Source: Cercospora beticola
Lineage: Eukaryota; Ascomycota; Dothideomycetes; Mycosphaerellales; Mycosphaerellaceae
Direction: 5' to 3'
DNA length: 64,000 bases
Assembly: GCF_033473495.1 (NCBI RefSeq)
Contig: NC_088938.1
Coordinates: 682,001 to 746,000, forward strand
Part shown: positions 29,662 to 58,356 of the stretch, piece by piece
Layout of the letters: each line of letters starts with the position of its first letter
How positions within the stretch are numbered: position 1 is the stretch's first letter
The notes under the pieces: generated by a model
Database searches by the model: none
What the model saw: the letters and a program-made list of their open reading frames with translations, nothing else
Told to the model about the DNA's origin: nothing
Made by a program: the position numbers and the translations under genes

Positions 29662-29894
29662 GTTGAGGTGAAGAGCAGGAGAGGAGGTGCCTTACGGCGG
29701 CAGCGCCATATTGTTGGTCGCAACGTTGCTGGCGGATTCGCGAGACGATGGCACTTCGTATGGATTGTGGCTGCGAAAGTGGCTTTGACGGCAAGCACGG
29801 CCAAGACGGCCCATCGACGCGTGGCAAGTGCAGCCCGCCAGCTCCCCGAAGTTCTGCCACTGCACTCAGCTTGTTGCGGTAGACGACTTCACAC

Positions 29895-39917: not shown

Positions 39918-40661
39918 ATGGTGTTGGCATGGCCCAAGAACACTTCGAACACGTATTCGCCCCTTGGAAGCACAGAAAAAGGCCAACAACCAGTCACGAG
40001 CGAGGAACCTGAAACGCATGGCGATAGTGCTTCCTGGGAGCGCACTCCAAGCACGTCTCGACGATCCAGAAGCTGGGAAGCCGTTCAGATTATCACCTGC
40101 ATCCTTTGCATCGCTATACTCCTGGCAACTATAGGCCAGAACTTCCGACGCCCGTCCACGCTGCCTACCAAGTACCGCAAAGAGACTATAACATGCGGGA
40201 ACACAACTGACGAGGCAAAATCGCGAGGCTGCGTCTTCGATCTGCTGGCAAACAATTGGGTGGCACCCCAATGCCTCGATCCGTTGACTGAATCCGAATA
40301 TCGAAGCTGGCTTTTCAGTCCGGAACGTGCACATGGATCTTTTCCATTCTTCTATGATCCAGAGGGCAGACATCGTGTTCCGGACGAGCATGCTCTTTCG
40401 CTCCACGCTGATGGACCGACGGAGCACGACAGGCGCGTATACACCACTCGCGAGCAACACCTGAATCATTGCATCTTCGTCTTGAAACGACTTCATCGTG
40501 CTATGCGGGGACAAGTCGTACTCAATGATGAACATGGGGCATACGCGCACACCGAACATTGTGCGACGCAACTCTATCTCGATAACGTGAGCATATTGGA
40601 CAAGCTTGTGGAGGAATGCTACATCGGGTATGCGAATTGTACGATAGACGTCCCAATTTGA
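39918..40661 (+). CDS. Divergent UstYa-like (DUF3328-related) type II membrane protein
   Basis: The single-exon 247-residue protein has a Ser/Thr-rich cytosolic N-terminus, one membrane helix at about 54-73 (QIITCILCIAILLATIGQNF) and a lumenal domain. The domain begins with ITCGNTTDEAKSRGCVFDLL, carries acidic and aromatic segments, and ends with the paired motif HLNHC ... HTEHC. Two HxxHC motifs are the hallmark of the UstYa family, whose members catalyse oxidative cyclisation in fungal RiPP pathways. This subtype (CG-x4-EA-x3-GC-x-FD) is more distant from canonical UstYa but shares the pair. The same subtype recurs at 56863, so the two mark both ends of the cluster. Catalysis is inferred. 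Confidence 0.8.
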   Translation: MVLAWPKNTSNTYSPLGSTEKGQQPVTSEEPETHGDSASWERTPSTSRRSRSWEAVQIITCILCIAILLATIGQNFRRPSTLPTKYRKETITCGNTTDEAKSRGCVFDLLANNWVAPQCLDPLTESEYRSWLFSPERAHGSFPFFYDPEGRHRVPDEHALSLHADGPTEHDRRVYTTREQHLNHCIFVLKRLHRAMRGQVVLNDEHGAYAHTEHCATQLYLDNVSILDKLVEECYIGYANCTIDVPI

Positions 40662-40876
40662 GCCATGGGGGCTTTCCCAGCGCTGATTGCGTCCTACTCT
40701 CTTCTGATAACCAATACTGCTCTCGTAACTGGAATGAGCGTTTCACGTTGACAGCTGAAGCTTCCGCTCCCGACTCGCGCGATTTGACAGTGGCGCCAAA
40801 TAACGAGATTCTGACCGAGAGCACGATTGACAATACGATTTTTGATATTCGATACACCTCAACTGCAATCAAGTAG

Positions 40877-42595
40877 CTAATCGCTCGTTCGAACCTCTCG
40901 GAGTAAATGCCACGATCTCCACGAGGCACCAACTCCTGCCGCACCAGCTACAGCCATGGCCCACCTAAACTGGTCGTCGCTTGCGACATCTAGATATCTT
41001 GCCACCATAAACGCAAATCCACAAAGCCCAGCGGCGAGTATTTGTGGCGCGGAAAGCGCTGCATTGTGCAAGCTGGTCAAAGTTCCTGCATCATGGGACT
41101 CTGTGACTTTCCTCCCAATCAGAGCGTATGGTATCCAGGTCGACAATGCTCGCGGGATGCCAACCAGCGCGAAAATCCAGACACCCTGTGTCTCAGTCAC
41201 TGCGAACAGACTGACTACCATTGCCAATGCAAACAGAATATGGCCTCCAGCCCAGATGACGACAAGCGTAGTTAGGGATCCGATCTTGCCACCGAAGGTG
41301 CTGCGTTTAGATGATGTGCTCGCCCAGTGCGACGTGGCTGCCATGATCACAGCGGTTGCGAACATGACCACGGTGTGAGGTACGGAGTCGGCAGCTGCGT
41401 GTTCTGCTTCATTTGTTGGCTGCGAAAGTCCGTAAGCACGGCCGACTTTGTAGAGGCTGGCCAAATAGCTATGTCCAAGTCAGCAAAGAAGCAACGAGGG
41501 AGTCGCTGCGCAAAATGCAAATCAGAACGTACCCTGTCTGGTAGTACAACGCGGGAAACCATCCCAACCAAGAGAAGAACTGAACCTGCAGCGTGAGCTG
41601 AATGCTCCTCGGCAACAACCTCAAGCAATTTACATTCCGCTTGACAGCATGCTTCAGTGATGCCGAATACTGCGACGAACTCGCAGCCCCATCAATCTTC
41701 TTCCTCGGACTCCGGAAAGGACAGACCATCGTAATCGCCGAACACAACAACAATATCATAGACACCACCAGCGTCAAATTCTGGAACTGCCAGATCGCAG
41801 ACCACGCTCCTGGACGATTCCCGAATTGAACAGAAGCCAGGAAATATCCACTCACTGTCCCAAAAGCGACCAGAACCCCTTGACTAGCCGCAAATCGTGC
41901 CTGCGCCTCTTTGGAACAAATCTCATGCAATAACGTCCTTATCCCTCCTTGCAGAGGCTGCACGGAAATACTCAGCGCCCAGACCCAGATTGTAGCGTTG
42001 AGAATGAGTAAAAGAGTCTCGTATTCTTGTCCAAGGTTCAAAAATTTCTCCAAGAAGACTACGATGTTGGGGATCCAAGCTAAAGCGATCATGGAAGTTG
42101 CTGTTGCGATTGCTCCCCCGAGGATAAAGGGTTTGCGTTTGTTACGTCCGGTTCGGCTTCCTTTTGGTTCGTAGGAATCGCTGAGTGCTCCCATGAGGGG
42201 TTGCACGATCATGCCGCAGATTGGACCGGATATCCAGAGGAATGCTGAGACGGACATGGGGATGCCGATGTAGGTGAGGTAGGACTGCAATCCGGTCAGC
42301 GGAGTGTTTTCACGAAGTGTTATCACGATCCGGGTTGACGAACTGTGCCTCGAGCGAAAATCGTGGACCAGACGAGCTGCAGCCTTTTGGGAAGTCAGGT
42401 CAGTCAATTTCGCCAAGAGGAGCAAGACTTTGGCACTCACGCCCATAGTGTACTGCCTGCCGCTGCAAGCTGGGTGAGATTTCCACCTCCATCGTTGTCT
42501 TCAACGGGCTCGTCTGCAAGATCAGCCTTTTCGAGCAGCGAGAAGTGCTGCTCTATGCTTTCTCTTGGGCTTGACGTTGACGGACGTGAAGACAT
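40877..42595 (-). CDS. MFS transporter, SUT/GPH (sucrose-proton) type
   Basis: Four exons (42441-42595, 42344-42383, 41533-42284, 40877-41468) join in frame to give 512 residues; exon 2 is only 40 nt and restores the family block LQLVWSTIFARGT. About twelve membrane helices are expected. The loop between helices 2 and 3 reads RTGRNKRKPFILGG, the glycoside-pentoside-hexuronide/SUT signature, after ISGPICGMIVQPLMGALSD. Family members import sucrose, maltose or related glucosides. It converges on the UstYa-like gene at 39918 (215 bp between stops), so it may belong to the RiPP cluster as an exporter, or be a sugar carrier next to it; the sequence cannot decide. Confidence 0.85.
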
Positions 42596-44811
42596 TTTGG
42601 CACTGCTTTCGAGGAGAGTCACACACAGAAACGACGCGTCTCGTTCACACTCAGGATCTTGTTACATTACATCTGATAGCATATCGATCGGCCGGGTCTC
42701 GGAGTTGTGAGCCATTGCGAAAGGACGGTCATGATGAGCATGTCAGCGATCACGAACTGTTCTGTCACTTCCGAACCGACCTGTGGATTCCGGGTCAGCG
42801 ACCACGACCCCTTCGTCAAGACCCTCGAGGGTATTCTGCACATTCTTGGGTCTGGTACTCTGAGCATACGCCGAATGAACGTGACTATTGCTTCGGACTC
42901 CGTACTATCACCGAGCTGCACTAGCGTCACTACTGCACGCTGAGCTAAGAGCTGAGTCGAAGCCTGCGGCCAAGCTGCACTCCAACGTCAAAACTTTCGC
43001 TCCGGAGTCCTTCCTTCGGTTCGGTTCCTGCAGCGTACGTGTGACCATTACCGCAAATCGTAGTGATGGTCGATCTTGCTCGACCGGATCGCATCAGGGT
43101 AATGATATGTAGAGATGCTTCATCACGATCATGAAGCAAAAGTGCCATCGCAGAGCGAAGCAGACTAATTGAACCCATTTATTGACCTTCATTTCGGGCT
43201 AGCGAAGGAACCCACCACCGCACAAAGCAACTGGATCAGATTTCATCATCTTCTTCGCATCGATTTCAAGCTCACCGAAAAGAAAAGAAATTCGGAATGG
43301 AAAGAGTCATCTTCACAAACTGGTCAATGCACAACTTCTCCAGACCTCGACTGCAGAAGACTATTTCTAGCCCAGTGGAAAAGTCATCTGTCATTACCAG
43401 TTCGCTTCCCACCAGACAAGTAGTGCAACGGCCATCATACAATAACAAGACCGGAAACGATTATACCCTACAACAAGACTCTCTGCGAACGCAATTGCAA
43501 GCTTTAGTATTCTGTTTGGCGCCTAGTGTGCTGGCAGTCGCATTATGGAGGCTACGATAGAGCTTCGCTGTTGATTTGAAGACAGAAGTGGTGGTGTCCT
43601 TACACGGCTGACGCATTCGTCACGGAGCCACATGGACCGGACATGAGGGCCAAACTTTCGTACGTACCGTACTGTCGGTACGGCGTTGCAAAACCCTCAT
43701 GGTGGTTGGGGTCCCGGTTGATGAGGAAGTGGCAAGAAGGCAACAGGTCGACTTTGCGACTCACAGGGCACTTGTCGCGGTCCGTTTTTACATTTATCAA
43801 TTTATGGCTTTCGGTTGCATCTTCATAAAATGAAATTAGACATCCTTTGCACAAACCCTAAGCACAGCTTACAGTTTCTGTCTTAACCTTTGGCATAGTC
43901 TATGCTGCAATCAATCTAATTCGTCAGCTCGCAGACCCCCGGCTCCTTGTACATCAGGGGCTCATCCTAGTCGATACTTTGAAGGCCTGTTGGTACATAC
44001 GGTCGTAGACTTACGGACGCATGTCGCGTGATCAAAGCTTATATCCCTCATGGTTGTCAATAGACTTTTCTCTGCAGACGAGAGTGCTTACGCAGAACTG
44101 GGCACGACCTTGTTCGTCGAGATGACAAAGTGCGTCGAAAGGATCTGTATCAATCGATTGAATTTCTGACACGCGCCTCGCGACTCGAAATATTTGGTGC
44201 AACCAGATGCTCTGTCTGCATAAATATCCGTCTACTCAACGCTGTGCTGAAGATGTCGTACTGAATGAACATTCTGCGTGATCGCGAGTCTGCGAAGATG
44301 TCTTTAGTCGTAGATAGCTTGCCAATTGCAAGAGATATGGAGCGTATTATCCGAACAGAATCATAAATCACGCGGCTCTTGAAGATCGCTAGATGTGAGC
44401 GGTGAATGCAGTACCAACCAAGGACTTCCCTTCCCAGGAGTTAGAGAAGTGAAGGCAAAAGCTCAAGAGTTTATTGATCACTATCGACTTCGACTTTTCT
44501 CTGCAGATACCAGTCAGTTAGTCTCGCTTTCACTATCACCATGCTAACAACGTGAAGAAAAGAAGAGTCTTAAGTAAAGCCAAATGATCTATCGCGAGTA
44601 TCTGCATCGAACTCCTAAGCATACACCAAAGCCAGAAACTCCAATACAAAAGGGAAAATCTATTTGTGGTTTTCGTCTGAATCGTTCCCTCCTTCGTCCC
44701 GTGCCCATTGCCACAATAGTAACTCCTCAAGTTCGTGAATCCCGTGCCCATGCGTGCACAAACTGTGAATACATGGCTCCGGCGCCACGTGCTTGTGTCA
44801 AGCTAAATCAC
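42596..44811. other. Intergenic region inside the cluster, 2.2 kb
   Basis: No supported gene. ORFs at 43169-43560 and 44150-44371 lack domains and signal peptides. The 15-base word GACTTTTCTCTGCAG occurs twice (near 44065 and 44492). The size is unusual for such a gene-dense cluster and may reflect loss of a former gene. Confidence 0.4.
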
Positions 44812-46550
44812 TTACTCCTTGTTGGCAGCCTTAGGGGACCAGACATACTGAGGAGCGGCCTCTGCGGCATCGCGCTTCTCAGCTGCCTTAGGAGACCAGA
44901 CATACTGTGGTGCAGCCTCAGCGGCGTCGCGCTTCTCAGCTGCCTTTGGAGACCAGACATATTGCGGCGCGGCCTCGGCAGCGTCACGCTTCTCGGCAGC
45001 CTTTGGAGACCAGACGTATTGTGGTGCGGCTTCAGCGGCGTCACGCTTCTCGGCGGCCTTTGGAGACCAGACGTATTGTGGTGCGGCTTCAGCGGCGTCA
45101 CGCTTCTCAGCTGCTTTTGGAGACCAGACGTATTGTGGTGCAGCCTCGGCGGCATCGCGCTTCTCAGCGGCTTTTGGCGACCAGACGTATTGTGGTGCGG
45201 CTTCAGCGGCGTCACGCTTCTCGGCGGCCTTTGGAGACCAGACGTATTGTGGTGCGGCTTCAGCGGCGTCACGCTTCTCAGCTGCTTTTGGAGACCAGAC
45301 GTATTGTGGTGCAGCCTCGGCGGCATCGCGCTTCTCGGCAGCCTTTGGCGACCACACATATTGAGGAGCTGCCTCGGCGGCGTCGCGCTTCTCAGCGGCT
45401 TTCGGTGACCAGACGTATTGAGGAGCCGCCTCGGCAGCCTCTGCATCGCGCTTCTCGGCAGCCTTTGGCGACCACACATATTGAGGAGCTGCCTCGGCGG
45501 CGTCGCGCTTCTCAGCTGCCTTTGGCGACCAGACGTATTGAGGAGCCGCTTCTGCAGCCTCCGCGTCACGCTTCTCGGCGGCCTTTGGCGACCACACATA
45601 TTGAGGAGCTGCCTCGGCGGCGTCGCGCTTCTCAGCTGCCTTTGGCGACCAGACGTATTGAGGAGCCGCTTCTGCAGCCTCCGCGTCACGCTTCTCGGCG
45701 GCCTTTGGCGACCACACATATTGAGGAGCTGCCTCGGCGGCGTCGCGCTTCTCAGCGGCTTTCGGTGACCAGACGTATTGAGGAGCCGCCTCGGCAGCCT
45801 CTGCATCGCGCTTCTCGGCAGCCTTTGGCGACCACACATATTGAGGAGCTGCCTCAGCAGCCTCCGCCTCGCGCTTCTCGGCAGCCTTTGGAGACCACAC
45901 ATACTGAGGAGCGGCTTCCGCACGCTTCTCAGCAGCTTTTGGAGACCACACATACTGAGGAGCCGCCTCCGCCGCTTCAGCTTCACGCTTCTCGGCGGCC
46001 TTTGGAGACCAGACGTATTGGGGGGCGGCCTCTGCTGCTTCCGCCTCACGCTTCTCAGCAGCCTTTGGAGACCAGACGTATTGAGGAGCGGCTTCTGCAC
46101 GCTTCTCGGCAGCCTTTGGAGACCAGACGTATTGTGGGGCAGCCTCTGCGCGCTTCTCGGCAGCCTTTGGAGACCAGACATATTGAGGAGCAGCCTCTGC
46201 AGCTTCCGCCTCGGCCTCACGTTTCTCGGCGGCCTTTGGGGACCAGACGTACTGAGGAGCGGCTTCGGCACGCTTCTCAGCAGCCTTGGGGGACCAGACA
46301 TACTGTGGAGCAGCCTCTGCGCGCTTCTCGGCAGCCTTTGGTGACCAGACATACTGGGGAGCAGCCTCTGCCGCCTCGGCCTCGGCCTCACGCTTCTCCG
46401 CGGCCTTCGGGGACCAGACGTATTGCGGAGCAGCCTCTGCGCGCTTTTCTGCCGCCTTTGGGGACCAGACATACTGAGGGGCGGCCTCTGCGGGATCGCG
46501 TTTGGCAGCGGCCTTTGGGGACCAGACATACTGAGGAGCGGCCTCAGCTC
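44812..46550 (-). repeat. 51-69-bp coding tandem repeats with 120-bp higher-order period
   Basis: The DNA of the precursor is built from units of 51, 57, 63 or 69 bp. Copies 14-20 alternate 63- and 57-bp units, so the real period is 120 bp there and those dimers are almost identical; the final ten copies (3' end of the gene) are all 57 bp. Differences between units are mostly synonymous inside the core, showing that the core peptide is held by selection or by gene conversion while the spacer length drifts. Confidence 0.85.
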
Positions 46551-46623
46551 TCACGTCGATAGCAGCGCCATTGGCGGTGGCGACAAGAGCAGCCAAAGCA
46601 GCGGCGGTGTAGCTGTACTTCAT
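44812..46623 (-). CDS. RiPP precursor with 30 Kex2-type repeats (dikaritin-like UstA-type)
   Basis: The intronless 603-residue protein has a signal peptide (about residues 1-19, MKYSYTAAALAALVATANG), a short AAIDVR segment, then 30 tandem repeats. Each repeat contains the invariant segment APQYVWSPKAA and, in copies 1-29, ends in Lys-Arg (AAEKR, once AAAKR); the last copy ends ANKE without Lys-Arg. Unit length is 17, 19, 21 or 23 residues, set only by the spacer after Lys-Arg (AE, DPAE, DAAE, DAEAAE, EAEAAE, EAEAEAAE). Secreted multi-core precursors cut at Lys-Arg by Kex2 are the substrates of UstYa-type clusters (ustiloxin, phomopsin, asperipin families). The core is expected around YVWSP. 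The high repeat identity may include assembly uncertainty in copy number. Confidence 0.92.
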   Translation of the reverse strand: MKYSYTAAALAALVATANGAAIDVRAEAAPQYVWSPKAAAKRDPAEAAPQYVWSPKAAEKRAEAAPQYVWSPKAAEKREAEAEAAEAAPQYVWSPKAAEKRAEAAPQYVWSPKAAEKRAEAAPQYVWSPKAAEKREAEAEAAEAAPQYVWSPKAAEKRAEAAPQYVWSPKAAEKRAEAAPQYVWSPKAAEKREAEAAEAAPQYVWSPKAAEKREAEAAEAAPQYVWSPKAAEKRAEAAPQYVWSPKAAEKREAEAAEAAPQYVWSPKAAEKRDAEAAEAAPQYVWSPKAAEKRDAAEAAPQYVWSPKAAEKRDAEAAEAAPQYVWSPKAAEKRDAAEAAPQYVWSPKAAEKRDAEAAEAAPQYVWSPKAAEKRDAAEAAPQYVWSPKAAEKRDAEAAEAAPQYVWSPKAAEKRDAAEAAPQYVWSPKAAEKRDAAEAAPQYVWSPKAAEKRDAAEAAPQYVWSPKAAEKRDAAEAAPQYVWSPKAAEKRDAAEAAPQYVWSPKAAEKRDAAEAAPQYVWSPKAAEKRDAAEAAPQYVWSPKAAEKRDAAEAAPQYVWSPKAAEKRDAAEAAPQYVWSPKAAEKRDAAEAAPQYVWSPKAANKE

Positions 46624-48817
46624 TTTTGCGGTGTGTTTGGGGGTCGGCTTTGACTTTGAATTGTTTGCTTGTCGTGGGGCTGGGAGCTTTGTAAGGAGTG
46701 GGAGCTTGGTAAGGAACGAGTTCGAGTGCTGATGAGATCAAATGCCTTCGAGGTGATGCTGTTGCTGATGCTGATGAGATGACATTCGACGGAATTTTGG
46801 CTTCCATATATACATGATGGTGGCCATTCGAATGTTCGGACTTTGCCATCGTTCGAAAGGGAAGTTGCTGCTTCGTTGCTGTCACAGTCCGTCCGCAGGC
46901 CCTTGTTACCCGCATAGCGCAGTACTACAGTGCGTTGAGCGTCTCTACCGACAGCAGATTAGCAGACCTGATGAAACAACGAAGTCCGTCCTAGATGCTC
47001 AGGACTTCGGACAAGACAAAGCGCTATCGAATTTGGCAAAGCGTCGACACAGTATCGAGTCAAACACGACGCACGCCGGAGCCCGTGTGAGATAGCTCCA
47101 CATCGTCGGTTCACTGGTGGTCAGATAATCCTGGAGCGCGATTCATAGAGAGGAGCGTGACATGCGCGCAATCAAAGGAAGACAGATTGACCGAGATCAG
47201 CAACGGCCGCAAGCATTGGCCGTCCGATGCCATAACGCAACAGCCGCAGGGTTCTCAATGATACTCCCACCTGTCGGTATCCGATCGAAAGGTCAATGAA
47301 TTGCTTCTGGCCGTCTCGACGAACGCTCAGCTCTAAGGTGCCAAATAAGGATATTCCTGCCAGAGCTTTGCCGTGCAGATTGATCCATGCCGGACGCCGT
47401 CTCTTACAGGCACAGTCCGAGTACTGTGCCGCTTTTGGACTCGGGGTTCATGCTGTCGTCCAGCATGTTATCCACATGCAGAAGGGAAAGATGCGTCTGG
47501 TACTCGGAGTGCGTTGTGCCTGACGACGGGGTCAGCGGATGACATCCGTCAAAATTTCAATGGCGTGCATTGAGAAGACGCGGCCGCAGCTGAGGAGCGG
47601 CGCAAGCATCGTGTGATGAGGTGAGGTGAGGTCAAGCATGACCAATGTGCAATGTTGGATTGGAGTCGAACTGCGTCGCGTCGCGTCGCCAACTGAGGTC
47701 TAGTTCTACACGGGCCGTGCCGTTCGTCCGGCCGTTCGGGACTTTTTCGCGTCCGGTAAGCTTCTTAACTTCGTCCCCCATGCTCGAGTTGGATTCGCCC
47801 ACAACTTACAAGTCAGCAGGGATATTGCCTGATCCTGCTGGCATCAAGCATTACCAGCAATAACTCAGCTCCGCAGAGCTTATGGTGATTGCTGAGCAAG
47901 GCTCACATCCGGTCTAGACTCGAGCCGTACAGAATGCCATGCATTTTCGTGGAGCACAAGCGTGCGTGTAAGTCCAGAGTGCATCTGTTCGTTTGTGTCG
48001 CCTGGTATTGATATTAGCAACAAGTTCTGCAGGTACAGAGGCATGTTTCAGGTTGTACGAGTACCAATCACTAATCCGAAAAGGAATGCTGGTGCAGAGA
48101 TGCTCGGGGTCGATCAGACAGGGCGCAATGCCTCGATCCTCTAGACACCCTGCATGGCATTCCCCGTATGCGTGATACGTATCACTGCACTTGTAGCGAA
48201 TCACGCAAGAGAAGATGTAGACGGGCCGGGGCAGGCTTGAGCGTCCGCGAGACCTAAGGGTGGCGGAGGATTTGATTGTAGCCGTCTGAGAATACGGCGT
48301 TCACAGAGGGATCCACCTCGAATGATCGTGGCAAGAACTGATACACGCCCGCATGCAGCTTGGCCGACGTCCCTTGACACATAATTGTGGAAGATGCTCG
48401 GTAAATATTCGAGGATAGGACTTTGGAGGATCGTCGAGGTTGAATGGAGAGAAACACGTAATCTATCGCCCTTCCTGGTGATCGAGGTTTCAAGGCGGGC
48501 AAAGCGCGCGGACAACTCAAGTCACGGTCAACATCGGGGCTACGTGACCTAATGAGCGGTCAAGGGACAGCATGTGCAAGGCGGGAGAGCAGCACTCCCA
48601 ACGTCACCGACGACCTCGCACCGATCACTCCGCGCAGTCCGACCGTGCAATATTTCGGGCTTCGTTTCTGTTGCTGACTCAAAGCTGGCAAGGCCGAACG
48701 ACCGATGGTCAAACAAGGACGTCTGAGAATTGGCACTATGCATTTGCTTCTTGCCAACATTTGTTGCGCTGTCCCTGATGTTCTTGATTCCCCTCATTCA
48801 CGACACATCGATGCAAC
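46624..48817. other. Divergent intergenic region, precursor to first UstYa gene
   Basis: 2.2 kb between the divergently transcribed precursor and UstYa gene at 48818. No gene is supported. GAGGTGAGGTGAGGT (near 47619-47633) is a small direct repeat. Shared regulatory sites would be expected here but none is obvious by eye. Confidence 0.4.
46806..46812 (-). promoter_or_regulatory. Candidate TATA element of the precursor gene
   Basis: ATATATA, about 185 nt upstream of the precursor ATG (46623) on its coding strand. Position is compatible with a core promoter and a ~150-nt leader; not tested. Confidence 0.35.
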
Positions 48818-49786
48818 ATGAAGAGTATCTTCAACACTGAAGCCAAGCTGGGAGAAGAATATCGTCGCCTGTCCCTGGACGACGAAGAAGGGAACAGAAG
48901 CTCAAGCCCAAGGGTCATCTTTACGAAGCAAGGGAACAAAAGCCTCTACGCTTGCATAATTTTCCTGGCACTTGGCTGGCTTGCAACTTGCGCTTACGTG
49001 TACCGCACGCGTTTTCAGTCCAACGGTCTGCTCCACGTCTACTACAACACACCAATTCCCAAAGATGTTTTCAAGCCTGTGAAGAAGATCTTTCACCGTG
49101 ACGAGCGTTACGTTGGCTGGAACGATGAAGTAAATCGCAATTGGGACAGACTGGTTGCAGGTAATTCTCCCCAATGTAATGCCGCTTTTGTGAGCGAGCT
49201 CGCTGAGATGATACAGGTCATGACGCCGTTTGGATTGAGAACCCTGAAAGATGGGGTCTTCCGCCGGGACAGGTAGCTCCGTATGAGCATCCAAACACTC
49301 CTGATCCCAAGCCTCACGATTTCTACGTCATATCTACGCTGCATTCTCTTCATTGTTTGGTGAGTCTCTGGGTCCAAACATACAGATGCTGTCTAGACCA
49401 CTAATTCACGCCAAGAACATGATACGGTTTCAGTTCTTTTCAGACAAATATGGGCACGTTGAAGATGGCGACTTCAAGGACCCAGACTATACAATGAAGC
49501 ACTGGGATGTTCATATCGAGCATTGCTTTGAATACATGCGTCAAAGTATTTCTTGCGGTGGCGACCTAATTCTAGAGGGCTCAAGTGCAGTGGACATTGA
49601 CGGAAAACAAGTCACATCTGTGACGGGCTGGGGTAAGTCTCATCGATTTTCTCTAATGCAATTCCCAGAATGCTCACATGTTGTTTTCCAGGAGTCGAAC
49701 ACGATTGCATCGACTTTGACCTGCTATGGCAGTTTCAAACCGATCAAGAAGCAAAATACAATCGTACATGGCAGCTCCCTGGTTGA
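48818..49786 (+). CDS. UstYa-family (DUF3328) protein A, putative RiPP oxidase
   Basis: Four exons (48818-49160, 49217-49359, 49416-49632, 49692-49786) keep frame and give 265 residues. A charged N-terminus precedes one membrane helix at about 43-61 (LYACIIFLALGWLATCAYVY). The lumenal domain has the family blocks: AGHDAVW, ENPERWGLPPG, the first motif HSLHCLNMIR (split by intron 2), the second HIEHCFEYMRQSISC, and the C-terminal GWGVEHDCIDFDLLWQF. Paired HxxHC motifs are thought to bind a metal, and UstYa/UstYb-type proteins form ether or C-C crosslinks on Tyr-containing core peptides in dikaritin pathways. It is divergent from the precursor and converges on the GNAT gene (67 bp). Confidence 0.92.
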
Positions 49787-49853
49787 ACAGCAAGACTTTC
49801 TAAAAAAAAAAAACATACACGTAGATACTTCCATATCTGGAAACATTCGATCA

Positions 49854-50534
49854 TCACAGACCATACAAACTGATGTCTTTGCTCATTCCTGGCTTGACCC
49901 AGATAGCCACTGGTAGACCTCCGAACTCTTTCAAGTCCTTAACGCCACAATCTTGGAATTGCAAACTCCTAAAAACCGCCGCAGAGGCCTTGTTCTCAGG
50001 ATCGAAAAGCCCTAGAATGTCTCGTACTCCCAACGCAGATTCCGCATAATGCATCACCGCTTGCGATGCTTCGCGAGTGTAGCCTTTACGAGTCTCTTCG
50101 GGCAGTATGGCGAAGCCCAGATCGGGTGCTGAGAATGCAGTCGGCGGCTTGCCACGCATTAGTGAGACCGTTCCAATGGGTTTCGATTGTTTCAGGGTCT
50201 CTTGAAAGGATTCTGAGTGATCGTTCTGTGCACCCTCTGGGTCTCGTCGCAAGGATACCAGATACATGCCGTAGCCATTGCGTTTATGGTCATTCAAGAA
50301 TCGACCGCCGATTTCGTTTCGAGCGTCTTCGCGTGTTCTGACTTTGGTCTGTCCGCATGTCTTGATGAATTCTGGCGTATTCCACAGCTGGACCAGAAAA
50401 TCACAATGAGAATCGTTAGATGCTAGAAAGTGCGAGATGTAAAGTCTCGGCGTGGTGATGTGGAATTCAGGATCCATGTTTTCCAGGGCTAGCGGTTCTA
50501 CCAAGCGTGCCATAGATCCAAGAACAGAGCTCAT
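49854..50534 (-). CDS. GNAT-family N-acetyltransferase (RimJ/RimL-like)
   Basis: The single-exon 226-residue protein matches the RimJ/RimL-type GNAT fold: an N-terminal strand TPRLYISHF, the central PIGTVSLMRG, DLGFAILPEETRKGYTREASQAV (the acetyl-CoA-binding loop is a degenerate E-x-R-K-G-Y), and a C-terminal FDPENKASAAVFRSLQFQDCG. Relatives acetylate amino groups of proteins or small molecules with acetyl-CoA. It sits between two UstYa genes, so acetylation of the trimmed peptide N-terminus or of the Lys in the repeat is a reasonable inference, but RimL-like genes are also common as unrelated neighbours. Confidence 0.85.
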   Translation of the reverse strand: MSSVLGSMARLVEPLALENMDPEFHITTPRLYISHFLASNDSHCDFLVQLWNTPEFIKTCGQTKVRTREDARNEIGGRFLNDHKRNGYGMYLVSLRRDPEGAQNDHSESFQETLKQSKPIGTVSLMRGKPPTAFSAPDLGFAILPEETRKGYTREASQAVMHYAESALGVRDILGLFDPENKASAAVFRSLQFQDCGVKDLKEFGGLPVAIWVKPGMSKDISLYGL

Positions 50535-50975
50535 GAAACTTTATGTACACATGACCGGAAAAATTGTGGTCACTGCGTGATCCCACGGACGTAAGCGAAC
50601 CTTAACGCATTCTCAGCATCCGCCAGTCAGATTACTGAGAATCCTTCACCCTACAAAGTCTAATATTCATACGCGGACGACATGGGAGCGAAACTCAACA
50701 CTTGACAGGGCTTTTGTTGGCCAATTTCGCTCCCGATCGACATATTCGACAAAAGATATGAGGCTCTTCGGAATGTTCCTGGTAGTCAAGTTCGCGTGAT
50801 GGGAGCAGAATGACTCCATCGGCTGCCAAAAACGGGGTAAATGACCAGAGATCGATGTTTCTCTTGTCTTGTGTTCTTTGTATGCATGGTAGCAACTGTA
50901 GCGTTCGAAAAACCTGACGCGGATCGATCTATGGACGAACAAAACGGACCGTGAATGTTGCTTTGTCGAGCGTGC
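50535..50975. other. Spacer between the GNAT and UstYa B genes
   Basis: 441 bp between co-directional minus-strand genes; no gene seen. Confidence 0.4.
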
Positions 50976-52011
50976 TCAAGCTGTAGTATTCCATGTACGA
51001 TTGTACGCCTCTAGTTGCTGTCTTTGCCATTGCATCAGACGCTCCCAATTAATGCAAGAGTGCACGACGCCCTAGATAATAGTCAGTATGAAAACCAATA
51101 CTTGCAAAGAATAGGACTGCTGCACTTACCCAAGCCAGGCCTCCCTCATAGAACTCTGGCGGACTTCCAGGCGGAGAATCACTCTCCAAGACCATATAGT
51201 CGGCTGGAACACGATCAGTGATTCGCCACATAGTAACTTGATCGAGACATACCGCATGTGATCGAGTATCGCAAATATTCGATACAGTGCTCAACGTGCT
51301 CAATCCAATCTTCGTCCTCGGGATTCTTGGCCAGCGGGCTTACATCCGGATCGTAGACGAGCATATTGTACCTCCGTCTGATCACATTTGTACAATGTAG
51401 TTGATGTAGCGTATTGAGGACGTAGAAGTTCTTCACATTGTCCAAGGATGCAGCCGAGGCGGGAGGCTCATCGAATATGAACATAGGAGCACGGATGCCC
51501 GCATCATGAAGTCCATAACGCTCCGGGTCAGAAATATACACGGAGTCGGAGCCTATACGATGAGGTCAATGATTGGCAAAATCAGGTGCGATTTGTGAGT
51601 CTCGTACTTGCTGTCAAGGTATTCCAGTGAGAGTTGACTTCAGCCCCTGGGCCCATGTATCTGCGATCAGGACTGGCTTGTTGTCAGACGCATTCGAAGA
51701 GTTTGAATAGATCATACTCACCTGAATGCAACATTCTTACGCATCGTGAAGATGTCCTGAGGCACTGGTGTGTTCGGATTGACGCCCCAACTGGTGACAG
51801 AGAGTCGCGAATATCGCACACAGAAGTATCCTAGGACCAGCCCAAGTGTGATGTTAAGCAAAGAGAACGAAACATAGAACATGCGGCCATGTGCCTGAGA
51901 CTTCTGGCTGGGCGTATAGTGCTGCGAAGACGCCCATTGATCTTCTGCAAGTAGTTTCTCGGCCTCAGGGAAGCCGCGCTCGAATGCTCTGCCCTTTGAT
52001 TTTGCTTCCAT
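50976..52011 (-). CDS. UstYa-family (DUF3328) protein B, putative RiPP oxidase
   Basis: Five exons (51722-52011, 51608-51660, 51253-51552, 51130-51203, 50976-51071) all keep frame and give 270 residues. One membrane helix lies at about 44-64 (MFYVSFSLLNITLGLVLGYF). The lumenal part has NTLTA near a small 53-nt exon, then SVYISDPERYGL, the first motif HQLHCTNVIRRRY, the second HVEHCIEYLRYSITC, and the classical tail GVVHSCINWERL created at the last splice junction. All hallmark residues are present. In characterised clusters two or more UstYa homologues act one after another on one core peptide. It is divergent from the oxygenase gene at 53247 with 1.2 kb between starts. Confidence 0.92.
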
Positions 52012-53246
52012 AGTTGTGTGTTGGGAATGTAAGTCGATGGAAACCTCAACGAGTTGATGGATGGAAGTCGTTTTCCAACGGCTCATCAGCATTGCAATCG
52101 GCCTCCATCAACGCTGCTGTTGTCATTCCCGATGGCTCAGTCATGCTTAGTCGCGCAATCGCCAGGCCCACGTTAGGATCGGAGTCCAGCAGTGCTCACT
52201 TTTCGTGGCGTGACCTTCGGCCCTAGGATTTGTCGTAGCACACCGTCATTCCGGCTTCGTGGCCTCCGATCTTCAATCAAGGCATTGTTCGTGATTCTAT
52301 ATCAAAAAGTAGTAGTGGCTCTGAATAATGCTTCAGTCTCAGGCCCCATCATGATGGTGAACAGTTGATGATATACAGAACTTACGCACCAGTAGTCGTG
52401 TGGATTATTTGAAGCATCTCGGGCACTCCCTACTTCTGAGCAGACCGATCAATACGGACGGTAGGATTACCGGACGCTGCCGGGGCCAACCACGCAGGTC
52501 AGCCTAGGGCAGGCATTAAAGTTCGCAGTTACTGCATAGGGTTATTGGACAGGGCTAGTACGAGGGGCCCCAGGTCTGCTTCCAGGAATATCCTTGCTGC
52601 CAGGCAACGTCACCGCCTGTCTTTGCAGTAACTTTCGAATTTTCCGTACGTAGCGATGAGTCGTGCCTCATCTTAAGTCCGGACGTGGGATTGTTGCACA
52701 AGGTCAGAGTGGGCATCGTCGGACTTGGTCAGCCTAACGTACTCCCCGAATGCCTCTCACGGTGTCGAGTGCAGAGAACGACTTCGAATTACATCTTCTC
52801 GCCGTGAACTTTTCGAAATTACTTGCACTCCATTTGCTTCGAGTTGCTTCTGACCTTCAGCAGCGCTTGAGACTCTGTAGTCATTGTCATCATGGCATGG
52901 CACCAAGAATTGCAGAGACTTATCCGTGCTCCAGGAGACCTACGTCGCATGACAGCATGAGCTGCTTGGATCATCTTCACCGGGCACCGACCTTCAATAT
53001 ACCGATGTCCTCAACTAAGGTTCACCGCTGCTGCTGGCACCGATTGGATCGATGCAGTACAGCGTAGCTGTGGCTGAGTGAGCCTCCCTCATACGGAAGA
53101 TCGATGAGATAAGATAGAGCCTGAGATCCGAGGGCGCTTCAAGCTGTACAAATACATCCTCTAGCAGTTTCAAGCCGTTCTCTCCCTTTCGTTGCAAATA
53201 CTCTCCCAAAAGCTGTTGTCACGATTTTGCATTCGACTTGTTCAAT
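52012..53246. other. Divergent intergenic region, UstYa B to oxygenase
   Basis: 1.2 kb between divergent cluster genes, without a supported gene; ORF 52750-53067 has no domain. It is a likely bidirectional promoter region. Confidence 0.4.
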
Positions 53247-54266
53247 ATGGCATCTAAGAAGCCCTCCAATGACGGTGTTCGGACGGCATCGTCCAGCAAC
53301 AAATGGACAACTGCAGCTGTGCTGCTTCCCACCCTGCTCTTTGGAATCGACAAGTGGTCTCACATCAGCTCGAAGTTCTCACTTGACCAATGGCAACTTG
53401 CTCAAATGGTACCAAGCGCCATCATGCCAGAAGTCAAGACCGCCATGCCAAACATCACGGCCGCTCGAACAGAAATGGCGAATCGATATGCACAAGGATG
53501 CCCAGATCATCAGTACAGCACTCGACTCTTGTCCGCAGATCCACTTGTTATGTATATCGAGGGCCTAGTTACACAAGAAGAAGCCGACTATCTTCTAGTC
53601 CTGGCAGAGCCGTACTACATGGCTTCACCCCTATCAGGGCCCATGGGACGAACATACAACAATGAATATCGAAAGTCAGTCTCTGCGGTCGTACCAGACG
53701 ATCCCGTCGTCGCTTGTATTCGAAAGCGAGCGGCAGATTTCCAGGGCTTCATGCCTGTCGGACACGTTGAAGATATCCAGCTCGTCAAGTATGGGACGAG
53801 TGACGAGTTCCGACCACACTTCGACTGGCATCCAGGTATGCTGAATCCACGTGTCTCAACATTCTTCGTATATCTGGCCTGCGATGACAAGGAGAACGGT
53901 GGAAGCTGCGAGGGCGGTGAAACAGGCTTTCCACGCTGGTCAGGGCTCTTCGCAACAGAATGGTGCAACCAGGGCTTCGTCGACTGCAAGCAGTCGAAGG
54001 AAGGCGGAATCTACTTCCCGCCTGTGATCGGCAACGCTGTGTTCTGGCACAATTTCTACCCCAACGGAACTGGTGTCGATGGAACATATCATGCAGGCAT
54101 GCCTGTGAGGAAGGGTCGAAAGGTTGGACTGAATATCTTCAGCCGGAAGAATGAGTACTTTTCTGAGATTCTTGAGATTCATGACAGGAATCAGTTGTCA
54201 GAAGCCGACAGGAAACGATGTGACGCTGAGTCGAAGGATGGACCGTGCTACGTAGAGGTGCTTTAG
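53247..54266 (+). CDS. 2OG-Fe(II) oxygenase, prolyl-4-hydroxylase-like
   Basis: The intronless protein has 339 residues counted from the ATG at 53247. It has a hydrophobic anchor near residues 20-34 (WTTAAVLLPTLLFGI), then a P4H catalytic domain: YIEGLVTQEEADYLL, RPHFDWHPGM with the iron-binding H-x-D near residues 190-192, FFVYLACDD, GGETGFPRW, and GTYHAGMPVRKGRKVGLNIFSR with the distal His near 280 and the basic residue that holds 2-oxoglutarate. P4H enzymes hydroxylate Pro in peptides in the secretory lumen. The precursor repeat contains two Pro (AP-Q and SP-K), so it is a natural candidate substrate; that link is inference from position. Confidence 0.9.
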   Translation: MASKKPSNDGVRTASSSNKWTTAAVLLPTLLFGIDKWSHISSKFSLDQWQLAQMVPSAIMPEVKTAMPNITAARTEMANRYAQGCPDHQYSTRLLSADPLVMYIEGLVTQEEADYLLVLAEPYYMASPLSGPMGRTYNNEYRKSVSAVVPDDPVVACIRKRAADFQGFMPVGHVEDIQLVKYGTSDEFRPHFDWHPGMLNPRVSTFFVYLACDDKENGGSCEGGETGFPRWSGLFATEWCNQGFVDCKQSKEGGIYFPPVIGNAVFWHNFYPNGTGVDGTYHAGMPVRKGRKVGLNIFSRKNEYFSEILEIHDRNQLSEADRKRCDAESKDGPCYVEVL

Positions 54267-54838
54267 ACGAGGAATGGCGGATTTCCCATAGAGAAGAGAT
54301 TGTAGCGTAAGACTTTCAGACACATGAGACAATGATGAGTGTTTCCTTGTTCATTTGCTCCACCGTTCTGCTTCATCCCGGCTCAAATTTGATTAGAGTT
54401 GCATACAGCGCCACTTGAGCGTCGAGGAGAGGCATGTTCATCTGACGACGCTCAAAGTTGCGTGGTAAATCGTGACCAGGCTTTCCCGACGTCCCTGGTA
54501 TATCCCGTAGAAGTGGCTGAATCTTGGGGTGGCAATCCACCATCGGGATTACATAAACATGACTGGGTGCTCCGGTCTTCGTCAGGACCCTTTTGAGCTT
54601 CAATGCCGGAGTCCGTATACCTGTGTGTGTAGATGCGTCGTCGACGACGGTGCTGCTCGCCGTTGTTGGGATAATAGCGCTAGCGGTGTATAGAGAACCC
54701 CCTTTTGCAATCCTACCAAGTAACAGTCTTGCAGATCGTTGAGGGGCGAGCACTTCTTCCTTCCATTCCAGACTCGCTCAGAACAAGCACACTCTCTTCC
54801 ATCTCTTTTCTCCCTTTCTCACTTTCATATAAGCACAG
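54267..54838. other. Spacer between the oxygenase and UstYa C genes
   Basis: 572 bp between co-directional genes; no coding signal recognised on either strand (a 126-codon minus-strand ORF has no domain). Confidence 0.4.
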
Positions 54839-55703
54839 ATGGACAGCAAAGGAAGGACAAGCGGCTCTTACCTGGACGATGACTCCATCCACGAGGACAA
54901 CCCTCTCATGTCCCAGAACACAGGAGCCAAAAGACCAGTAACAAGAAGATGGCTCAATGGAAGAACAATCTTCACGACCCTCAACTTGGCTCTGTTCTTG
55001 ACAGGTATCTCTGTTTGGTCCCAGGTTGCGATGCTTGTCAAAACGAAGAATCTCAGCTGCAAAGCAATAGCCAATTCGGCTGGAGAGGCGGATTGTGAGT
55101 GCACTTCCTCGTTGTGGACACCCAGTATTCTGATCGAAAGCAGTGGCATACGACAGTAGAGTTGTCTTTCAACCAAATTGGCCGCTCGTCGATCCGCCGA
55201 CCAATGAAACGAACGAGTTGTGGAATCGTTTGTCTCCTCCTGGCGAAGGTGTCATCGAGCTTCCGAACGAAGCCACTGTAGGGCTTCCTCCATCCAAGCC
55301 GTCTACGAAGAGGCCTCTGACACATACCGTAAGTTCGACACGCTCACCTCGTGCACTTCGGATGCAAGCTAACAGTAGTTCCTTCTCATCGCAGGTATAC
55401 GGCGTCTCAGTCTTCCACCAACTGCATTGCGTCAACTTACTGCGTCTCAACATGTATCCCGAAGAGTTCTCGTGGACACTCACCGACAAGACTCCAGAAG
55501 AGATTCGCATGCATCGAGATCACTGCATCGATTACCTCCGTCAAGCCATCATGTGCAACGCCGATGTGACCTTTGAGCCATGGACGAAGCACGGCATCAA
55601 CGGCATGGATGCCATACATCAATGCCGTGACTACAACAAGATCTTCACCTGGGCCTATGAGCAGCGCATGGATAAAGAGAAGGATGTCATCGATCCGCTT
55701 TGA
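54839..55703 (+). CDS. UstYa-family (DUF3328) protein C, putative RiPP oxidase
   Basis: Three exons (54839-55094, 55144-55328, 55395-55703) keep frame and give 249 residues. A polar N-terminus is followed by one membrane helix at about 43-60 (TIFTTLNLALFLTGISVW). The lumenal domain shows FQPNWPLVDPPTNETNELW, GVIELPNEATVGLPPSKP, the first motif VFHQLHCVNLLRL and the second HRDHCIDYLRQAIMCNADVTFEPW. It follows the longer-loop UstYa subtype rather than the AGHDAVW subtype of proteins A and B, so it may catalyse a different step. It is co-directional with the oxygenase upstream and the UstYa-like gene downstream. Confidence 0.92.
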
Positions 55704-56862
55704 GGTTTCTGTTGGTGGAGGTGCTCAGTACGAAGGTCCAAAATCTTGTGGGTTGGGTTGATAGGGCGTAGTGTAGCAGAACTAGCAGATTGCTCGGTCC
55801 TCAAGTTTTCTTAGGTGTATATAAGAATGTTGTCCTGTTTGAATAGATTGCACAATGCGACGGTGTATGCCGGGTAGTACCTACTCCTTCTCATATGCGG
55901 GGAAATTGCCTGCGCGTAGCTCCCTTCCTTCCAGGTCAATGTTAAACCTTGCCAAGATTGATGCGGCCGCGCAGCGGGTCTGACATAGATCCAACACTGT
56001 GGCCTTTCCACCTACCAATTCAAATACGCATGACACAACGCCTCTTCGAGACGATGAGCACTTGAAGAACTCGTGCGATTCAAGTTTCAGGTACCTCGTA
56101 TACTTATTCCAGTCAAGAGGGTACAGTCTTGTAGCTAGCTGGAGTGCATTCGACAACGACTCGTGTAGAAAAAAAAAACTTAACGCGCTCCCTGCACGAG
56201 CAGTACGTAGTCCGGAGTTAGGCAACGCAATTCTTCTTGGGTTTGCGTACAAGTGTCTCGTCTGATGCTTCGCAAAGCTTCCTAGAGCCAGATCGAGTCA
56301 AGACGCCAGTACCTGTATTGCACTGCGTGGTATACCCTTAGGTGGTTTGAGTGGCTTGAACTGAACGTATACAGAACCCCTCTACAAGCATGCCATCAGA
56401 CGCTTTGCGACGAGCCTGAACAGACCAACCTGCCTCAACATGCATCAGAATTGATGCAGCTTCCGTACTGTAGAAGGTAGTTGCAACCTGGACGAGAAGG
56501 CACGTGCCAAGCGGCTGCGAGGTAGGGGAACCCTGATTTCCGTCGAATGGTCGTGATCACAAATCAGAACACTTTAAGTTTCCAGCATAATTGCAGTGCC
56601 GGACTTGTTGTCATGGCGAAACTCCGTGTCTTCGTGGCCTGTCGGTCCGCCGTTGTTCATGTCGTCTGGTTGGCCCCTCGAACTTGCTAAATATCTGCCT
56701 GACGGCATTGGCTGGGCCCACAGTAATGTGCTGCACATATTGCGGCCTCCGAAGAAAGAACATGCCCGAGCATACGCACAGCTGCTCTAAGCAGTGCAGG
56801 TGGTTAAGGAGATCAGCTTCATTCGTATTCGTTGTCCATGTGCGCATTGATCGGAATACAGG
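55704..56862. other. Spacer between UstYa C and UstYa-like D genes
   Basis: 1.16 kb without a supported gene. A TATATAA word near 55817-55823 falls in the 3' flank of UstYa C. Confidence 0.4.
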
Positions 56863-57639
56863 ATGCCAGCATACCTAGCGCGCGGTGGCAGTCTGATGAA
56901 GAAAATCGAAGCCAGCATCAACGGCAAGAAGAGATTGGCCAACGGAGGAGAGTACGATGGTGATCGATTCGAGTTGTGCCCAGGTTGCAGAAGTCGATCG
57001 CGACCGAGTCGTTTCTGGTTCGTAGTCCTAGCCTGCCTGGTTGTTGGGAACTTGTTCGCCTGGATGGTCTACGACATTCGCCATACACAGCGCGGAAGCT
57101 TCGCCTCGCCGCCACGTTACACGCACGCCGTGCAAGAACGAAAGAAACTCCAAGATTCTGCCAGACTCGACAGCCACGGCAAGCCCCTCGATTCATGCTA
57201 TTGCGGCAGGAGCGTGTCGGAAGCCAAATCGCTGGGATGCATTTTCGATCCCATCAGCCCCTCCTGGATGCCGCCACATTGCCACGACTCCGAGCTCGAC
57301 GCGAAATTTCGAGCAGAAGCCGCGCATTACAATGCGGACGGCGAATGGCACTTCTACCGAGACGAGAACAGGACAGAGGAAATGTCGTCCGAAGAGGTCG
57401 AGAACTTGGCGAATTACTGGGAGCATGAGACGGGCGTCGCCGGAGGGTATGCCAGTTGGGAGTGGCATATGTTGCATTGTCTGTATCTCTATCAGAAAGC
57501 AATGCTGGCACAGCAAGGAAAGGTGGTCTTGGAGGCAAGATACCAGACGCTTGGCCATGCTCAGCATTGTACGATGATGTTCACGATGCCCAAGACTACC
57601 TTTACTGTCGTTGCCACAGATGGAGCGGTTCATACTTGA
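56863..57639 (+). CDS. Divergent UstYa-like type II membrane protein D
   Basis: The single-exon protein has 258 residues from the ATG at 56863; an in-frame ATG at 56896 is an alternative. One membrane helix lies at about 51-70 (FWFVVLACLVVGNLFAWMVY). The lumenal domain begins CYCGRSVSEAKSLGCIFDPI, carries an acidic central part, and ends with HMLHCLYLYQKAML and HAQHCTMMF, the paired HxxHC motifs of the UstYa family. It is a relative of the gene at 39918 (same C-G-x(n)-EA-x3-GC-x-FD start and same motif pair), and the two flank the cluster. Its role could be oxidase, scaffold or chaperone; only membership of the wider family is supported. Confidence 0.8.
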   Translation: MPAYLARGGSLMKKIEASINGKKRLANGGEYDGDRFELCPGCRSRSRPSRFWFVVLACLVVGNLFAWMVYDIRHTQRGSFASPPRYTHAVQERKKLQDSARLDSHGKPLDSCYCGRSVSEAKSLGCIFDPISPSWMPPHCHDSELDAKFRAEAAHYNADGEWHFYRDENRTEEMSSEEVENLANYWEHETGVAGGYASWEWHMLHCLYLYQKAMLAQQGKVVLEARYQTLGHAQHCTMMFTMPKTTFTVVATDGAVHT

Positions 57640-58356
57640 CGCGCTCCATGGTAACACACGACTCAATCTGAGATCATGACGCGAAATGCCCGTTCACATT
57701 TGCCGGCATGGAGAGGTCCGGGCTCTATTTGCGTGCTGGAGGTGTCGCTGCAGTATGCTGGTGTGCTGTCGACTCGAGGCACATAGGAGGCAAATGGTAT
57801 GGTACAAGCAGGGCATTGAATGTAGTCATGGATGGACAGTACGATATAATCGAAGGGCTGGAACTCGATGTGCCTGACTTGAGCGCAGGCGTAGCTCACA
57901 TACCGGACGTGCGTATATTTCCGTCTGCTCACTGCGGAGCTCTCTCCCCATAGTCCCACGTCTCGTGATAGAGATCAGTCAGCGCCCCACACGAGTGAAG
58001 AGAGTGATTGGACGCACGCTGCGACACGACGCGGGGTCGGATGGTGCTAGATTGGAGCGAGGCACAGCGGCACGCGAGGTCGTGGACAACACCGGATGGA
58101 GCAACGGGTGTTTGATAGCGAGCTGAGCTCCTACACCTTCCATCGACTGTCGTGCCTGTTCCCGTTCCTCTCCTACTACTGCTGGCCACTTTCTAGACTT
58201 TGCTTGTCATTGACACCACCTCCAGCAGCCCGTCTGCTGTCCATCCACGCTTCACCATCATTGATAGTACGCAGATGACGTGTCGATAGCACAGATTCGC
58301 CGACAGCACGCTTGGACAGGGAGCTATACCGCTCGGCATAGCGGTCAGTCAGCGAC
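57640..58356. other. Intergenic, right border of the RiPP cluster
   Basis: 717 bp without a supported gene, between UstYa-like D and the large coiled-coil gene. Confidence 0.4.

What the first reader, a model, noticed from the sequence alone, without database searches (positions are those of the whole stretch)
39918..57639. A complete-looking UstYa-type RiPP (dikaritin-like) gene cluster with an unfamiliar core peptide
Seen: a signal-peptide precursor with 30 Lys-Arg-ended repeats, three canonical UstYa/DUF3328 proteins and two divergent ones (all with two HxxHC motifs and one membrane helix), a P4H-like oxygenase, a GNAT and an MFS carrier, contiguous over 17.7 kb. Known: UstYa-family proteins and Kex2-processed repeat precursors together define the ustiloxin, phomopsin and asperipin type pathways. 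Inference: this cluster makes a modified peptide from a YVWSP-centred core, which I do not recognise as the core of a described dikaritin.
Basis: partly seen in the sequence, partly recalled or inferred. Interest (0 to 1): 0.92.

Follow-up and report, generated by a model that had tools for sequence, protein, structure and literature searches.

The report
Fungal UstYa-type modified-peptide gene cluster
A fungal genome carries an 18-kb set of genes that looks built to cut thirty near-identical copies of a small peptide out of one precursor and oxidise them into a modified natural product, a known kind of pathway with an undescribed peptide and some unusual parts.

Summary
A 603-aa precursor (44812-46623, minus) carries 30 units sharing an invariant AEAAPQYVWSPKAA; 29 of 30 end in KR. 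Silent sites among units vary widely while protein change is almost nil (pN/pS 0.016), so the peptide is under strong selection. Around it lie three PF11807 (UstYa/DUF3328) genes, two HxxHC proteins without a Pfam match, a prolyl-4-hydroxylase-like enzyme, a GNAT and a sucrose/SLC45-type carrier.

Best reading: a UstYa-type KEP-RiPP (dikaritin-like) cluster, a new variant of a known kind. Crosslinking is inferred, not shown. No tyrosinase or S41 peptidase lies in the window, unlike ustiloxin/phomopsin clusters.

(2) The unclassified HxxHC proteins belong to a family found beside UstYa genes at 4 of 5 other loci in this genome. (3) A second UstYa+KEP cluster (contig C9) has the same hydroxylase (52%) and HxxHC protein type.

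The core is unfamiliar but not unprecedented: a YVW[G/A][G/S] KEP class was reported in 2019.

The parts
39918..40661 (+). Y1: divergent HxxHC membrane protein, 247 aa, HxxHC at residues 181 and 211
   Evidence: ORF; no PF11807; TM and motifs; paralogous to Y5 at 29%
40877..42595 (-). GPH/SLC45-type carrier, 512 aa, 4 exons; membership of the cluster uncertain
   Evidence: splice model; TIGR01301 GPH_sucrose 1.2e-27 but 96.9 bits against a cutoff of 511; PDB SUC1 3.1e-16
44812..46623 (-). Precursor (KEP), 603 aa: hydrophobic N-terminus, then 30 units with AEAAPQYVWSPKAA; 29 end in KR; spacers none, DA, DP, EAEA, DAEA or EAEAEA
48818..49786 (+). Y2: canonical UstYa/DUF3328, 265 aa, exons 48818-49160, 49217-49359, 49416-49632, 49692-49786
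49854..50534 (-). GNAT acetyltransferase, 226 aa
   Evidence: PF13302 2.9e-17; weak PDB match (0.0029) to spermidine N-acetyltransferase
50976..52011 (-). Y3: canonical UstYa/DUF3328, 270 aa, 5 exons (52011-51722, 51660-51608, 51552-51253, 51203-51130, 51071-50976)
   Evidence: splice model; PF11807 6.1e-17 for its first 247 aa
53247..54266 (+). Prolyl-4-hydroxylase-like 2OG-Fe(II) oxygenase, 339 aa, HxD (H191, D193), distal H and K/R present, N-terminal hydrophobic segment
   Evidence: paralogue in the C9 cluster 52-54%
54839..55703 (+). Y4: canonical UstYa/DUF3328, 250 aa, 3 exons
56863..57639 (+). Y5: divergent HxxHC membrane protein, 258 aa, HxxHC at residues 202 and 232

Best explanation
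A UstYa-type (dikaritin-like) KEP-RiPP cluster. The precursor enters the secretory pathway; Kex2 cuts after KR, Kex1-type trimming removes KR, and a Ste13-type dipeptidyl aminopeptidase removes the X-Ala/X-Pro spacers, so 28 of the 30 units give the same AEAAPQYVWSPKAAE 15-mer and the first and last near-copies (order of these steps relative to oxidation unknown). Lumen-facing UstYa copper oxidases act on the aromatic part; the most likely outcome is an ether or C-C link from the Tyr phenol to a neighbouring side chain (Trp or Val beta-carbon), as Tyr is the linking residue in known dikaritins. The P4H-like enzyme would hydroxylate Pro or a neighbour, the GNAT would acetylate an amine, and unknown peptidases may trim the flanks. 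Shown: gene content, selection on the unit, spacer rule, family assignments, recurrence of the enzyme set. Inferred: every processing and chemical step.
For: 30 of 30 units identical over 14 residues with very high silent change. Three PF11807 genes within about 9 kb of the precursor, two more HxxHC proteins in the set. 22% of 7878 KEPs lie near DUF3328 genes, at 3.09 genes on average, while mating-factor KEPs nearly never do (PMC7329392, sections 7 and 8 read). DUF3328 CctR is a membrane-anchored, luminal, binuclear-copper, O2-dependent enzyme; its HxxHC(x)nHxxHC motif is the proposed copper site and its His/Cys mutants are inactive (PMC12435403, parts 1 and 2 of 3 read); Y1-Y5 all show that layout. 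The same genome holds a second KEP cluster with PF11807 genes, a divergent HxxHC protein and a P4H paralogue. The genome has two strong DPPIV_N (Ste13-type domain) matches elsewhere.
Against: No expression or product data. No tyrosinase or S41 peptidase in the window. Spacers are of the alpha-pheromone type, which Le Marquer et al. say is not predicted for ustiloxin/phomopsin precursors. The carrier is sucrose-like, not exporter-like. Neither protein search found any relative of the precursor, but both lacked a working positive control.
Confidence: 0.7

Rival explanations
1. The precursor gives an unmodified linear secreted signal, an alpha-pheromone-like peptide trimmed by Kex2, Ste13 and Kex1; the nearby oxidases act on something else.
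For: Every non-empty spacer (23 of 23) is an X-Ala/X-Pro dipeptide run, the alpha-pheromone signature (signature described in PMC6339444, and PMC9769878). I identified no KEP with a two-Cys Pro-Gly-Gln-type pheromone core in this genome: two patterns gave 15 distinct places, 6 for the reversed control, and the 3 whose surroundings I read are not KEPs. A separate pheromone gene is thus not demonstrated.
Against: No cysteines and no PYGxPxG core of the Dothideomycete pheromones. UstYa genes on both sides; almost no pheromone KEP has DUF3328 neighbours. 'No pheromone identified' is weak: the patterns were narrow and 12 of 15 places were not read.
Confidence: 0.13
2. Two neighbouring units: the pathway proper is precursor, Y2, GNAT, Y3, P4H, Y4, Y5 (44.8-57.6 kb), while Y1 and the sucrose-type carrier are bystanders. 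This concerns extent and does not exclude the best reading.
For: The carrier is SUC1/SLC45-like and separates Y1 from the rest; about 2.2 kb without a clear gene lies between carrier and precursor.
Against: Y1 and Y5 are paralogues and this family sits beside UstYa genes at 4 of 5 other loci.
Confidence: 0.3
3. The units give a structural or cell-wall repeat peptide needing no modification.
For: Such KEPs exist (Ustilago Rep1 is named in PMC9769878, passage); 30 near-identical units.
Against: The oxidase neighbourhood; the unit is short, with a compact aromatic centre (sequence, inference).
Confidence: 0.05

Closest known systems
Asperipin-2a type cluster (one precursor, one UstYa homologue AprY, transporter, reductase; PMC6514808 passages)
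   Same: Kex2 repeats plus UstYa-type oxidase; no tyrosinase; Tyr-containing core
   Different: Here three canonical and two divergent HxxHC proteins, a P4H-like enzyme and a GNAT; no reductase among the gene models scanned; different core; Ste13-type spacers
Ustiloxin and phomopsin clusters (dikaritins)
   Same: Signal-type precursor, repeated core followed by KR, several DUF3328 proteins; Tyr in the unit (PMC6514808 and PMC7329392)
   Different: No tyrosinase and no S41 peptidase in the window; Y-V-W core; dipeptide spacers, where UstA has ED before the core
KEP motif class YVW[G/A][G/S] (Le Marquer et al. 2019, PMC6339444, Results section read)
   Same: YVW in the repeated unit of a Pezizomycotina KEP
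   Different: Next residues are S-P, not [G/A][G/S]; the sections read do not say whether those KEPs have UstYa neighbours
Ascomycete alpha-pheromone precursors
   Same: Kex2 sites followed by X-Ala/X-Pro dipeptides
   Different: Core lacks the pheromone motifs; UstYa neighbours
Clan R2 lichen RiPP clusters (PMC12048977, passages)
   Same: UstYa-type genes with GNAT acetyltransferases
   Different: No repeated precursor found there; the words hydroxylase and oxygenase do not occur in its main text

Membership tests
KEX2-processed repeat protein (KEP) | Signal-type N-terminus and repeated units separated by dibasic sites | tested here: met
   30 units, 29 KR; hydrophobic N-terminus by eye, no signal predictor run
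Dikaritin (UstYa-type) RiPP cluster | DUF3328/UstYa protein(s), the class-defining enzyme, near the precursor (definition quoted in PMC12048977) | tested here: met
   Three PF11807 proteins above cut-off
Dikaritin (UstYa-type) RiPP cluster | Side-chain crosslinked product | not testable with these tools
   Needs LC-MS/MS or NMR
Ustiloxin/phomopsin subtype | Tyrosinase (UstQ/PhomQ type) in the cluster | tested here: not met
   25 PF00264 matches in the genome, none in the window; nearest on C4 ends at 485.6 kb against window start 682.0 kb
Ustiloxin/phomopsin subtype | S41 peptidase in the cluster | tested here: not met
   2 PF03572 matches in the genome, on C2 and C3. PMC12048977 notes that some functional clusters lack a peptidase
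UstYa/DUF3328 for Y2, Y3, Y4 | PF11807 match plus HxxHC(x)nHxxHC and one TM helix | tested here: met
UstYa/DUF3328 for Y1, Y5 | PF11807 match | tested here: not met
   No match at E<=1
UstYa/DUF3328 for Y1, Y5 | Double HxxHC, one N-terminal TM helix, remote profile similarity | tested here: inconclusive
   Motifs and TM met. hhalign 19% probability (14% the other way round), both HxxHC in register over 42 columns, score 30.1; 2 of 60 column shuffles scored higher (about 131), on 7-9 columns. Model pLDDT 57.8 puts both motifs on helices
Prolyl 4-hydroxylase-like 2OG oxygenase | PF13640 and HxD...H...K/R residues | tested here: met
   substrate not testable here
Ascomycete alpha-pheromone precursor | Ste13-type X-Ala/X-Pro spacers after KR | tested here: met
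   23 of 23 non-empty spacers are in-phase X-A/X-P dipeptides; 6 of 29 gaps are empty
Ascomycete alpha-pheromone precursor | Dothideomycete pheromone core (two Cys, or PYGxPxG) | tested here: not met
   Unit has no Cys and no PYG

The most novel reading that the evidence does not exclude
An alpha-pheromone-style precursor has been taken over by an oxidative RiPP pathway. Y1/Y5 are a second, unclassified family of HxxHC copper oxidases that work alongside, perhaps as heteromeric partners of, UstYa enzymes, and together with a membrane prolyl-4-hydroxylase they make a Tyr-Val-Trp-linked, hydroxylated peptide with no described counterpart.
Probability: 0.3. Interest if true: 0.7.

Novelty: new variant of a known kind. 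Interest (0 to 1): 0.5.

Why it matters
UstYa/DUF3328 proteins were reported as binuclear copper enzymes in 2025 (PMC12435403), and which member does which reaction in a cluster is largely open. This cluster supplies a clear substrate (thirty near-identical units), three canonical and two unclassified HxxHC proteins, and a 2OG hydroxylase that recurs in a sister cluster of the same genome. It makes two questions directly testable: does the double HxxHC motif mark a wider superfamily than PF11807, and can a Ste13-trimmed precursor feed UstYa enzymes?

Tried and rejected
Precursor homologues: two protein searches (first 293 aa, then full length) gave none among 8000 candidates each. Uninformative: common words such as AAEKR probably fill the candidate list, and not even the precursor itself was returned.

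Second copy of the repeat in the genome: none seen; 30 of the 39 pattern places lie in this gene, and the other 9 are scattered hits with 2 (one) or 3 (eight) mismatches, against 7 for the reversed control.

Alpha-pheromone elsewhere in the genome: two patterns, 15 distinct places against 6 for the reversed control; 3 of 15 read, none a KEP; inconclusive.

Text search for YVWG/YVWS/YVWA: 53 papers, 30 listed, none on fungal RiPPs by its title; 23 not seen. The 2019 KEP paper was not in the part listed, probably because it prints the motif with brackets. Searches gave no described UstYa cluster with this core or with a prolyl hydroxylase in the listings, sections and passages I saw; only openly licensed PMC papers are held and supplements could not be opened.

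Structure: one model of Y5 (4 sequences, pLDDT 57.8), too weak for a fold comparison. A second model and the fold search never got a slot.

PDB sequence search: no relative of canonical UstYa (Y4) at E<=1; for the Y1/Y5 alignment only a chance-level match, E 0.11, to an apelin-receptor fusion.
Full report
What is there. The window is G000:C4:682001-746000 of a 36.07-Mb, 10-contig fungal genome. Its Y5 protein is 93% identical to an unnamed protein (source 'lgn', one contig) and 47% identical over 80% of its length to a Septoria linicola protein, the only two hits at E<=0.001 among 177 candidates. That suggests Mycosphaerellaceae or kin (taxonomy); the species is not established.

Precursor. 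The 603-aa product of 46623-44812 (minus) has a short hydrophobic N-terminus and 30 units. Over the 14 residues AEAAPQYVWSPKAA all 30 are identical in protein. The silent codons vary widely: pS 0.65 against pN 0.010, ratio 0.016, and 24 distinct DNA versions among 30. So the units are mostly not fresh copies of one DNA unit; the peptide is held by selection. 28 units are AEAAPQYVWSPKAAEKR, the first ends AAKR and the last NKE-stop. The 29 gaps between units are empty (6) or made of X-Ala/X-Pro dipeptides: DA 13, DAEA 4, EAEA 3, EAEAEA 2, DP 1. This is the Ste13 signature described for alpha-pheromone precursors (PMC6339444, Results section read; PMC9769878, passages). After Kex2, Ste13-type and Kex1-type trimming, units 2 to 29 would each give AEAAPQYVWSPKAAE. 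Le Marquer et al. write that Ste13 is not predicted to process ustiloxin and phomopsin precursors, so this is an unusual combination; Umemura, however, notes 17 of 76 homologues of Ste13-type basidiomycete KEPs with DUF3328 neighbours, so it is not without parallel. Thirty units is high but not a record: Le Marquer et al. report up to 129, then 38.

Enzymes. Y2, Y3 and Y4 match PF11807 well above its cut-off (Y3 scanned as its first 247 of 270 aa). Y1 and Y5 do not match it at E<=1, yet carry two HxxHC motifs 30 residues apart and a single N-terminal hydrophobic helix, like the canonical three, where the spacing is 32-38. They are paralogues at 29%. Six family members were compared (Y1, Y5, P0002 and three paralogues): all six keep both HxxHC motifs and a stretch CGx4EAx4Cx8Wx4C, which none of 11 canonical sequences has; 10 of those 11 keep both HxxHC motifs. 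Three other paralogue open frames were left out as cut short, probably by introns: C5:292602 and C8:304951 show one HxxHC each and C9:86698 none. Profile comparison with the 11 canonical sequences (3 from the window and 8 of 19 frames extracted, hand-trimmed) aligned exactly the two HxxHC motifs with a score of 30.1 and a probability of 19% (14% with the roles swapped). Of 60 column shuffles 58 scored lower and two scored about 131 on 7-9 columns, which look like artefacts; the reversed profile scored 13.6. So distant homology is plausible, not proven. The low-confidence model of Y5 (pLDDT 57.8) places both motifs on helices 199-217 and 231-241.

Linkage of the divergent family to UstYa. Outside the window the Y1/Y5 family has matches at C5:292602, C5:846577 and 847832, C9:448673, C9:86698 (with a weak one at C9:85278) and C8:304951. 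Four of these five loci lie within 5 kb of a PF11807 match; C8 is 43 kb away. With 50 PF11807 places (merged by eye from 71 matches) a random point has a 1.0% chance of that, giving P about 6e-8 for at least 4 of 5. The 5-kb limit was chosen after seeing the distances.

A sister cluster. Contig C9, 448-460 kb, holds a Y1/Y5-type protein (448.3-449.2 kb), PF11807 matches at 448.1, 452.3 and 453.2-453.7 kb, a two-unit KEP with QGYPDGYYEDEAYVPP units (454.7-455.0 kb) and a P4H paralogue at 52-54% identity (459.5-460.4 kb). PF13640 finds only four places in the whole genome, a lower bound that misses the intron-split C9 copy. Of the three loci matched by the window's P4H, itself included, two lie in UstYa+KEP clusters; the third, C1:365 kb, does not. 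The tailoring set therefore recurs with a different core, which argues that the hydroxylase belongs to the pathway.

How it most likely works. DUF3328 CctR is a membrane-anchored enzyme with a luminal C-terminal domain and, by model, copper stoichiometry and mutants, a binuclear copper site made by HxxHC(x)nHxxHC; it needs O2 and electrons (PMC12435403, parts 1 and 2 of 3). All five Y proteins have that layout. UstYa-type proteins are needed for cyclisation of ustiloxins, asperipin-2a and phomopsins, through Tyr (PMC7329392 section 7; PMC6514808 passages). Here Tyr in YVWSP is the obvious linking residue, with Val or Trp the likely partner; this is inference. The P4H-like enzyme keeps its HxD...H...K/R residues and would act on Pro or a neighbour. 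The GNAT could acetylate an amino group, as PMC12048977 recounts for bacterial RiPPs when discussing GNAT genes in lichen clusters (passages). No tyrosinase or S41 peptidase is in the window, so it resembles the asperipin type more than the ustiloxin/phomopsin type.

Extent. Left of Y1 lie a ZFAND1-like AN1 zinc-finger gene (38087-38878) and, by eye among the 19 ORFs of 230 aa or more, genes that mostly look like housekeeping; right of Y5 a long ORF (58342-62415) without a Pfam match at E<=0.1. The carrier is sucrose/SLC45-like, so its role, and with it the membership of Y1, is less sure than the rest.

Novelty. The class is known. The core is not described in what I saw of the papers found, but a conserved YVW[G/A][G/S] KEP motif is (PMC6339444). 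Ste13-type spacing with UstYa neighbours, the P4H, and the divergent HxxHC family are what make it a variant. I score interest 0.5: useful and testable, not a new kind of system.

Noticed in passing
G000:C9:448000-460400 (L023, L024): Second UstYa+KEP cluster with a P4H paralogue and a divergent HxxHC protein but a Tyr-rich two-unit precursor.
   Followed up: partly
G000:C9:443456-447300 (L022, L023): A metal P-type ATPase-like gene (CPC motif, GMTCTGC, Cys-rich N-terminus, read by eye) lies about 1 kb from that cluster; notable because UstYa enzymes use copper.
   Followed up: no
G000:C9:90329-90829 (L031): KEP with five DVAKPDYQYLV units near a UstYa gene and a divergent HxxHC-family gene.
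   Followed up: no
G000:C8:1146879-1147208 (L035) and G000:C9:621077-621481 (L036): Two more Tyr-rich KEPs near UstYa genes.
   Followed up: no
G000:C5:849142-849969 (L029): KEP-like ORF with nine mostly RR-preceded DGGELSTADPEGDQSADAVENNKV units, without Tyr or Trp in that part, a few kb from UstYa and divergent HxxHC genes.
   Followed up: no
window 43297-43560 (+): Small ORF starting MERVIFTNWS and ending in a hydrophobic stretch, between carrier and precursor; may be spurious.
   Followed up: no
window 29883-32036 (+): 717-aa ORF that looks like a heterokaryon-incompatibility (HET) protein by eye.
   Followed up: no
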